Source: Chrysoporthe austroafricana
Lineage: Eukaryota; Ascomycota; Sordariomycetes; Diaporthales; Cryphonectriaceae
Assembly (NCBI GenBank): GCA_001051155.2
Contig: JYIP02000003.1
Coordinates: 1,488,001-1,552,000, forward strand
Direction of reading: 5' to 3'
Length of the DNA stretch: 64,000 nt
Shown: one piece after another, positions 48,947 to 51,027 of the stretch
How the letters are laid out: every line of letters begins with the position of its first letter
How positions within the stretch are numbered: position 1 is the first letter of the stretch
Notes under the pieces: generated by a model
Database searches by the model: none
Told to the model about the DNA's origin: nothing
The model's input: the letters and a program-made list of their open reading frames with translations, nothing else
Program-made: the position numbers and the translations under genes

Positions 48947-51027
48947 TCAGACGATCTTTTCCGGGCTCGCCATTTCTGGGATGCCTTCTTCCGCCAATCT
49001 CCACACATCCAACTCGCCCCTCGACAATGCCAACAGGTGGCGTTCCCAGTAGCCTACCATCGGCTCCTCAGGTAGCACGTCAACCGTTGGTCTCACCACC
49101 TTGCCGACGTTATTCTTGACGACAGCTTCCTCATCGAACACCCACTTCCAGTCACCGTCGCCGCTTCGTAAGTTGTATGTCTCACTGAGGTCATAGCCTA
49201 TTCCCTTCCTCTGCAGTTCAGCGTTCCAGAAGACTTCGTCCCTTTCTAGCTCTTCCCGCCCGATGGCGCCGCCGCGTTCCAGCCTCCACACTGGCCTCTC
49301 CTCATCGCTATCGTCCTCTAACAGCGACGGGCACGGCCACGCCCGCCTATCGTCCGTGCCCATGCCCCCCAGCCTGAGCCTCAGCCTTACACAAGAGTGC
49401 ACCCTCTCGTTCGTATTCAGCAGCGGCTCCGTCGTGTCCTCGTTGGTATCCGGATCGACTCTCATGAAGCACCCCGGCCTCCTGACAATCGTACCTGCGG
49501 CGAGCTCGATTGCACTGGTCGGCCAGCGCGTCTGCCCCAGGCCCCAGGGCCTCCCGTTGAACTTCCAGAGGTGTTCCGGTGAGCTGTGCGGGTGATGGTC
49601 CTTGCCGGTGCAGTTGGCCTGGTCGATGCGCTGGGTCGGTTTTGGTGGGGGACACGGCGTAGGTGAGAAGGCCCAGGGGATAGGAACGCGGTTCTGAAGC
49701 ATGATAGACCACATCCAGGAGGGGATGAAGATGGATGGGCTCGGGATGAAGGGGTACGGGTGGGCGGCATTGTAGCGGAGGGCGGAGTAGAAGAGCCTAG
49801 TGAGGCGGCGAGGGGAGAACTCAACGCCCAAAGGGGTGAGCTGGTCGCAGATCCCTGATATGATGATGTTGTCAGCCGGACTTGAGCTCCTGGCTGCCTG
49901 TCAGTGTGTAAGAGCGTTGAGCAAGCACTTACAGGCCAGTGCTATGCATGCGATCTGCTGGTCATACCATCCACCCCCCACGTTGGCGTGAGTCCCCGGA
50001 AACCACACCTGCTTGAGGTATGTCGTCGTGTTTCCTTCGAGGCGTTCCCACAGTGCTGGCTGGAATGAGCTTCTAGGTTCGTCCATGGCCAGTGCCTGGA
50101 AGGCATATTCAACCTTGCTCGAGATATGAGTGTTGGTGAACTTCCACGTGAAGGTGAAGTTAGTATTTCCCCTGGCAGAGACAGGGAAGGGATACTTATT
50201 CAGCTGCCGAGCCGTGGATTCCGATGACCGGTACGGGAGGTATCCCAAGTGACCCGACTGTGTCCCATACGGCGACCGCCTTGACGGTAATCAGTGTGGA
50301 ACCATCCTTGAAGGTGTTTCGAGTCCAGCGCCTCTGTATTCTGGTCAGTATGAGACTCGATAGTCTCTCGAGGGATCAAAGATCTCGTCTTGCCCTTATC
50401 AGCCAATCCCTGTACTCTTCCTTGCGCCTGTTCTCCCAGAGGATCTTGGCCTTGCCCTTCTCTCCATTGTACTTTGTGAGAAATTTAGCCGAGTCATCCA
50501 GAAAGTCCTCGTCGCTGCGGTCCTCGTCTGCCATGTTTTCGTAGTCCTCGAAAATGGAGTAAAAGCACGCCATGCCCTCGGTGTTCAACAGGCCGATTGA
50601 GGCGATGAGGTCTGCTATCGACCTCGCCGTGAACGCCCCCCGGGAGAAGCCGACCAGCACGATGTCATCACCGTCGACGTAGTTGGTGCAGATGTAGCTG
50701 TATGCCTCTCGAATGTCCTTGAGAACCGCGTCAGCCAAGTTCGCCGCGAGATGAGATGAACCCTCCTCGACGCACCGCTCCCAGGCCCATGCCGAAAGCT
50801 CCTCCCGTCAAGCGGTCCAGCCGACCTGCCGTCCCCAGGCCCGGGAGATAGTAGATGATCTGGTGGGCGCCGTCCGCACAGACTGGCTTGAGAGACCGAG
50901 AGAACCTCGTCACGTTGGTCACTGGGTTCACGTCTGGCCCGGTGGAGTTCTCCCACGTCCCGTCACAACATATAATGATCCTTTTCGACCTGGAGCTCGT
51001 GCCCCGGGGGGCTGCTGCTCGATCCAT
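48947..51027 (-). CDS. Tle1-like DUF2235 alpha/beta hydrolase (predicted phospholipase)
   Basis: Five exons (50776-51027, 50394-50717, 50200-50333, 49933-50147, 48947-49854) give a continuous 610-residue protein. The start contains KRIIICCDGTWENS, the family signature. Catalytic Ser109 is in GFSRGAF, Asp216 in VWDTVGS and His290 in FPGTHANVGGG. The same fold is used by bacterial type VI secretion phospholipase effectors (Tle1); fungal members are widespread, intracellular or of unknown location, and uncharacterised. The C-terminal domain (RPWGLGQTRW, RRPGCFMRVDPDTNED) is intact. To keep the frame, intron 2 must be GC-AG and intron 3 is best explained as AT-AC; introns 1 and 4 are GT-AG. All residues expected for hydrolysis are present. 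Confidence 0.87.
50148..50199 (-). other. Probable AT-AC intron in the Tle1-like gene
   Basis: On the minus strand the 52-nt intron starts ATAAGT and ends CTTCAC, with a perfect TACTAAC branch site about 10 nt before the end. Removal joins GGC-TCG-GCA-GCT-GA to G-TGG-AAG and restores one frame (GSAAEWKFTNTH). No GT-AG pair gives an open junction without losing conserved residues. Confidence 0.6.
50334..50393 (-). other. GC-AG intron in the Tle1-like gene
   Basis: The 60-nt intron begins GCAAGA after the codons for RDWLIR and ends AATACAG, with ACTGAC as branch site. It joins in phase to RRWTRNTFKDG. No in-frame GT donor is available near the end of the conserved exon. Confidence 0.7.

What the first reader, a model, noticed from the sequence alone, without database searches (positions are those of the whole stretch)
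50148..50199. Probable AT-AC intron with U2-type signals in a fungal hydrolase gene
The coding frame of the Tle1-like gene can be kept only by removing 52 nt that start ATAAGT and end CTTCAC, with a perfect TACTAAC branch point. Seen directly: the donor matches the usual GTAAGT except for the first base, and the end matches CAG except for the last base. Known: paired first/last intron bases can change together (AT-AC) in U2-type introns. Inference: this is a rare AT-AC intron, since most ascomycetes lack the minor spliceosome. A frameshift or a skipped conserved segment are alternatives, but every other exon of the 610-residue protein is intact.
Basis: partly seen in the sequence, partly recalled or inferred. 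Interest (0 to 1): 0.78.

Follow-up and report, generated by a model that had tools for sequence, protein, structure and literature searches.

The report
Conserved AT-AC intron in fungal gene
A short stretch inside a fungal enzyme gene is very probably a real intron that starts with AT and ends with AC instead of the usual GT and AG; a sister gene and genes of related fungi appear to carry the same odd intron at the same place, although these fungi are not known to have the special splicing machinery that normally handles such introns.

Summary
On the minus strand, 50199-50148 is 52 nt, ATAAGT...TACTAAC...CTTCAC. Removing it (with three other introns) gives a 610-residue PF09994 protein that matches homologues without a gap at the junction. 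Of 1903 removals that keep the frame open, it ties for best; 11 are GT/GC-AG and the best of those scores 34 units lower.

It is not isolated. A paralogue in the same genome has a 77-nt ATAAGT...GCTGAC...CAC intron at the same site and phase. Of 78 fetched homologues with the junction Trp, 65 have the contiguous block before it; the other 13 all show Thr (ACN) there, so what they read ends in AC. By name or tree these fall in Diaporthales, Sordariales, Ophiostomatales and Glomerellales. Six apparently genomic reading frames lack the intron.

U2 and U6 RNAs are found in the genome; U12 and U6atac are not. Best reading: an old AT-AC intron removed by the major spliceosome. Such introns are a known kind; the apparent age and the broken public gene models are the interest. 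No RNA evidence was available.

The parts
50776..51027 (-). exon 1 of the PF09994 (Tle1-like hydrolase) gene, start ATG at 51027
   Evidence: start codon chosen by homology
50718..50775 (-). intron 1, 58 nt, GTGCGT..CAAG
50394..50717 (-). exon 2
50334..50393 (-). intron 2, 60 nt, GCAAGA..ACAG (GC-AG)
   Evidence: WLIRRRW aligns gap-free to Coniella WLIKRRW
50200..50333 (-). exon 3, ends ..GGC TCG GCA GCT GA
50148..50199 (-). intron 3, 52 nt AT-AC intron (the finding)
50194..50199 (-). 5' splice site ATAAGT (GTAAGT except first base)
50159..50165 (-). branch-point heptamer TACTAAC; branch A at 50160
50148..50150 (-). 3' splice site CAC, ending 12 nt after the branch A
49933..50147 (-). exon 4, begins G TGG AAG TTC
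49855..49932 (-). intron 4, 78 nt, GTAAGT..TCAG
48947..49854 (-). exon 5 to stop

Best explanation
Window 50199-50148 (minus strand) is a phase-2 AT-AC intron of a fungal PF09994 hydrolase-like gene, removed by the major (U2) spliceosome. Shown at DNA and protein level: the donor keeps TAAGT at +2 to +6, the branch site is TACTAAC, and joining the exons makes GA|G (Glu) before a conserved Trp. Inferred from established work: U1 and U2 pair with those sites as usual, and A at the first and C at the last intron position replace the usual G and G in their second-step contact, so each end alone would be poor but the pair works. Inferred from the tree and the relatives: the intron was present before the two paralogues of this genome separated, persists in at least four orders of Sordariomycetes with its AC end, and has been lost in other lineages. 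Because neither end can change alone without harm, it would tend to stay AT-AC or be lost rather than turn into GT-AG (inference, untested).
For: Removal test: the 52-nt removal ties for first of 3575 stop-free removals (1903 in frame, 11 of them GT/GC-AG); in the paralogue the 77-nt AT-AC removal ties for first of 906 stop-free removals, of which 404 keep the frame and 0 are GT/GC-AG. Gap-free match to homologues at the junction. Same-site, same-phase AT-AC intron in the C21 paralogue. Of 78 homologues with the junction Trp, 65 have the G[ST]xx block and 13 do not; all 13 have Thr (ACN) before Trp. Of these 13, 9 can encode CTRAC with the branch A 10-20 nt before the end, against 0 of 69 exonic controls and 336 of 3000 random 10-mers. 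P0055 and P0125 also read through the donor: back-translation gives AYAAG and AYAC in register (by hand). U2 (3 copies over cut-off) and U6 (1 over cut-off) found; U12 and U6atac not. Published: AT-AC is the most efficient pair after GT-AG in a yeast intron, and yeast lacks U12 (passage of PMC6726248); no convincing minor introns in Ascomycota (passage of PMC10639083).
Against: No RNA. Donor bases are known from DNA only in this genome (2 of 2 ATAAGT); in relatives they are inferred from protein. P0095 (Colletotrichum gloeosporioides) back-translates to a donor with C at position 2 (RCARAT), an exception, and its stretch is in frame. 66 of 150 fetched proteins are contiguous at the site, and for those without DNA I cannot tell spliced from intronless; a correctly modelled GT-AG intron at this site would look the same. 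4 of the 13 Thr rows show no CTRAC-compatible stretch (perhaps because their models keep only a few intronic residues). The motif pair is not enriched in 264 kb. The depth of the paralogue split rests on branches of 80-88 support in a quick tree; gene conversion or transfer is not excluded. U11 and U4atac were not searched, and the control genomes rang for none of the four RNA families searched. One paper notes that such screens cannot demonstrate absence (passage of PMC7072748).
Confidence: 0.87

Rival explanations
1. The gene uses a GT-AG or GC-AG intron overlapping this region and the AT-AC appearance is accidental.
For: 11 GT/GC-AG removals keep the frame open in the main gene, e.g. GCTGAA..TGGAAG, 64 nt; many public gene models skip the block.
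Against: The best of them deletes the conserved A-E-W-K block and scores 34 lower; in the paralogue 0 of 404 frame-keeping removals are GT/GC-AG.
Confidence: 0.04
2. Assembly error, indel or pseudogene: a frameshift plus filler, not an intron.
For: Single assembly; no resequencing available.
Against: Exactly 52 extra nt with splice signals at both ends; a paralogue and other fungi carry extra sequence at the same codon with the same end; otherwise intact 610-aa gene, 75% identical to the partial Cryphonectria model.
Confidence: 0.03
3. A true U12-type (minor spliceosome) AT-AC intron.
For: AT-AC termini; short branch-to-end distance of 12 nt.
Against: Donor ATAAGT is not ATATCCTT and branch TACTAAC is not TCCTTAAC; U12 and U6atac not found where U2 and U6 are; surveys report minor introns absent from Ascomycota (passages of PMC10639083, PMC2846911).
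Confidence: 0.03
4. The AT-AC intron is recent in this lineage; the Thr-before-Trp rows of other fungi reflect independent gains at one favoured site.
For: The intron is apparently absent in several lineages: 6 of the 7 short reading frames are contiguous.
Against: Same codon, same phase and same rare end in two paralogues and, by protein, in four orders.
Confidence: 0.12

Closest known systems
U2-dependent AT-AC introns, e.g. human SCN4A intron 21 (passage of PMC2831892)
   Same: AT-AC termini, removed by the major spliceosome
   Different: Here in an ascomycete lineage with no known minor spliceosome; very short (52 nt); perfect TACTAAC; shared by two paralogues
Yeast AT-AC splicing: SUT635 protointron, RPL30 alternative junction, Parker and Siliciano mutants (passage of PMC6726248; the last paper not seen)
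   Same: Major spliceosome joins AT-AC without a minor spliceosome
   Different: Those are a protointron, an alternative junction or mutants; that paper says no standard yeast intron normally uses AT-AC, whereas this one interrupts conserved coding sequence
AT-AC junctions in fungi: 69 of 14305 in Trichoderma longibrachiatum (PMC4324775); AT-AC listed among the non-canonical pairs of Fusarium graminearum (PMC3577648); 0.09-5.19% in human fungal pathogens (PMC6176087); passages only
   Same: Rare AT-AC junctions reported from RNA-seq, two of the studies in Sordariomycetes (class recalled)
   Different: The passages seen describe no individual intron conserved across orders or paralogues

Membership tests
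U2-type AT-AC intron | AT at the 5' end and AC at the 3' end of the removed stretch | tested here: met
   paralogue (DNA level only)
U2-type AT-AC intron | major-class 5' splice site beyond position 1 (TAAGT) | tested here: met
   2 of 2 genomic copies
U2-type AT-AC intron | major-class branch point (TACTAAC / CTRAC) | tested here: met
   TACTAAC; GCTGAC
U2-type AT-AC intron | removed without a minor spliceosome | tested here: inconclusive
   U12, U6atac not found, U2 and U6 found; U11, U4atac not searched; no experiment
U2-type AT-AC intron | spliced in RNA at these positions | not testable with these tools
   no transcript data for this genome
U12-type intron | 5' splice site RTATCCTT | tested here: not met
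   ATAAGTAT at 50199
U12-type intron | branch site TCCTTAAC-like | tested here: not met
   ATACTAAC at the branch site
U12-type intron | minor snRNAs in the genome | tested here: inconclusive
   no U12 or U6atac match at E<=0.001 in G000, but the control genomes rang for neither and U11, U4atac were not searched
stwintron (nested twin intron; recalled) | room for two introns, one inside a splice site of the other | tested here: not met
   only 52 nt in all

The most novel reading that the evidence does not exclude
This is one AT-AC intron kept by the major spliceosome since before the split of two Sordariomycete subclasses and of the two paralogues, locked in by the mutual dependence of its first and last base, so that it has been lost repeatedly but hardly ever converted to GT-AG; it would be a natural long-term record of that base-base constraint in a lineage without a minor spliceosome.
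Probability: 0.55. Interest if true: 0.72.

Novelty: new member of a known kind. Interest (0 to 1): 0.6.

Why it matters
If true, it gives a single, comparable intron in many fungi with which to test how the first and last intron bases constrain each other in evolution, and whether AT-AC introns are lost rather than converted. In practice it would explain why public gene models of this family so often fail at this point: of 150 fetched homologues, 13 carry intron-like residues with Thr before the Trp, and in 23 more the block is missing (13 skip it with both flanks present, 10 lack the upstream flank, after setting aside 4 of its 17 'skipped' rows that look like another subfamily). That these failures are all due to the AT-AC intron is inference.

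Tried and rejected
Genome-wide count of ATAAGT..TACTAAC..CAC sites: the same pattern search was sent eight times and never answered. Instead 20 stretches of 10 kb of C17 were fetched and scanned with the window: after ATAAGT..CTRAC the ends YAG, YAC, YAT, YAA occur 1, 2, 1, 1 times, so I make no claim that AT-AC introns are common in this genome. Fungal DNA of relatives: one query (P0126) each in genome contigs, which is prokaryotic, and viral contigs gave 125 and 13 pattern matches, none a relative. I first misread the P0125 donor as G-first; in the right register it is AY. P0095 was kept as an exception. A stwintron was rejected for size. My first count called the 3575 removals in-frame; they were only stop-free, and one search gives the frame-keeping number. 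Papers: no report of an AT-AC intron in this family was listed by searches; that covers only the open library. I saw 'find' passages of ten papers: PMC10639083, PMC7072748, PMC6176087, PMC3577648, PMC4324775, PMC4084796, PMC3033335, PMC2831892, PMC2846911, PMC6726248, none in full.

Full report
The observation. The gene lies on the minus strand of the window. Reading 50199 down to 50148 gives ATAAGTATCCCTTCCCTGTCTCTGCCAGGGGAAATACTAACTTCACCTTCAC, 52 nt. TACTAAC is at 50165-50159 and 12 nt follow its branch A. With introns at 50775-50718 (GT-AG), 50393-50334 (GC-AG), 50199-50148 (AT-AC) and 49932-49855 (GT-AG) the gene encodes 610 residues, a full-length match to PF09994 (E 3.8e-82, profile 1-287 of 287). 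The window lies in a 48.15-Mb genome in 22 contigs; the nearest protein relatives are Diaporthales: Cryphonectria 75% over a partial model, Coniella 69% and Discula 70%, so the host is very probably a member of that order (inference).

Is the junction right? In one search Coniella reads GSSAEWRFTNT, Discula GSAAQWKFTNT, Diaporthe GSAKQWKFTST; the spliced window reads GSAAEWKFTNT with no gap. I scored removals of 30-139 nt around the site against three homologues and recounted them: 6875 tried, 3575 without a stop, 1903 of those keeping the downstream frame, 11 of these GT/GC-AG and 11 AT-AC. The 52-nt removal is best (238.3), tied with two slides of itself whose termini are TA..CG and AA..GT; only the AT-AC version fits splice signals. 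The best GT/GC-AG rival scores 204.0 and deletes AEWK.

The paralogue. A protein search of the same genome found relatives on C17, C21 and weakly C2. The C21 gene, a 573-residue PF09994 protein, has at the same codon and phase a 77-nt stretch ATAAGT..AAATAGCTGACTTTGCTTGACCAC, between GAACA and ATGGCGGTTC. The AT-AC removal ties for best (194.7) of 906 stop-free removals; 404 keep the frame, and none of those is GT/GC-AG. In the tree of 60 proteins the two genes fall in different clades: the main one in a Diaporthales clade (support 100), the paralogue with second copies of Coniella and Cryphonectria (100), inside a larger group of other orders (88). It is a quick tree with 19 of 57 inner branches open, so the depth of the split is likely, not proven. 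The C17 copy reads through the site without an intron and lacks the Trp motif (by eye).

Relatives. No fungal DNA could be fetched, but a protein that reads into the intron tells its end: the codon before Trp is then the last two intron bases plus one. Of 150 fetched homologues, 78 have the Trp motif before a common anchor; 65 of them have the contiguous G[ST]xx block, preceding the Trp with Q (59), E (3), A (2) or S (1), and 13 do not; all 13 have Thr before the Trp. Thr is ACN, so these stretches end in AC. A correctly modelled GT-AG intron would be invisible to this test. One search, with another rule, sorts the 150 as 66 contiguous, 13 Thr, 17 with both flanks but the block skipped (4 of them, P0138, P0139, P0140 and P0148, look like the other subfamily), 10 without the upstream flank, and 44 others. 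The 13 include Lasiosphaeris, Bombardia, Podospora didyma, Madurella, Chaetomium, Verticillium, Colletotrichum sojae, C. gloeosporioides, Grosmannia and four unnamed contigs, of which P0045, P0047 and P0055 fall in the Diaporthales clade and P0125 is a long branch. Taxonomy was looked up for Grosmannia (Ophiostomatales), Bombardia (Sordariales) and Cryphonectria (Diaporthales), all subclass Sordariomycetidae, and for Verticillium (Glomerellales, subclass Hypocreomycetidae); the others are recalled. In 9 of 13 the preceding residues can encode CTRAC with the branch A 10-20 nt before the end (12 nt in five), against 0 of 69 exonic controls and 336 of 3000 random 10-mers. Two proteins read through the donor in another frame: P0055 (..QLNKS..) gives A-Y-A-A-G and P0125 (..QLSNTS..) gives A-Y-A-C in register with a Gln/Glu codon (by hand). 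P0095 gives R-C-A-R-A-T, an exception.

Absence. Six of the seven short reading frames (P0121-P0124, P0126, P0127) cross the site contiguously and then run into what looks like unspliced intron 4, so they are probably genomic and lack the intron. The intron has therefore been lost, or was never present, in several lineages.

Which spliceosome? The donor is not RTATCCTT and the branch is not TCCTTAAC. U2 (119, 115 and 79 bits) and U6 (61 bits) are found in the genome, U12 and U6atac are not; the 14 control genomes rang for none of the four families, so U2 and U6 here are the only positive controls. Published surveys find no convincing minor introns in Ascomycota (passages of PMC10639083; PMC2846911). 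In yeast, AT-AC is the most efficient pair after GT-AG although yeast lacks a minor spliceosome, and no standard yeast intron normally uses it (passage of PMC6726248, citing Parker and Siliciano, whose paper I did not see).

Chance. A 52-nt stretch with NTAAGT, CTRAC near its end and AT..AC termini has a product rate of 3.6e-8 in this window, assuming independence. The motif pair alone is not special: two in 264 kb, with no clear excess of AC over other ends.

What it is. A U2-type AT-AC intron, an established kind. What seems new is that one such intron sits at one codon in two paralogues and, by its AC end, in four orders of two subclasses, and that public gene models often fail there. Not shown: RNA splicing, donors in relatives from DNA, a single origin.

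Noticed in passing
window 50393-50334, minus strand: Intron 2 of the same gene is a GC-AG intron (GCAAGA..TACTGAC..ACAG), so this gene carries two non-GT-AG introns.
   Followed up: partly
L018 (G000 C17), minus strand near locus position 1255: The C17 family member appears to have a GCAAGT donor at the place where the others have the GTAAGT of intron 4; seen by eye.
   Followed up: no
P0095, Colletotrichum gloeosporioides 23: The corresponding stretch is in frame without a stop and back-translates to a donor with C at position 2 (RCARAT) but still an AC end.
   Followed up: partly
P0022 (Cryphonectria), P0062 (Gnomoniopsis): Public models start at MDEPR just downstream of the intron, as expected if the intron could not be modelled.
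   Followed up: partly
L005 (G000 C17): The protein match of the C17 copy crosses one TAG; whether this is an intron or a broken gene was not examined.
   Followed up: no
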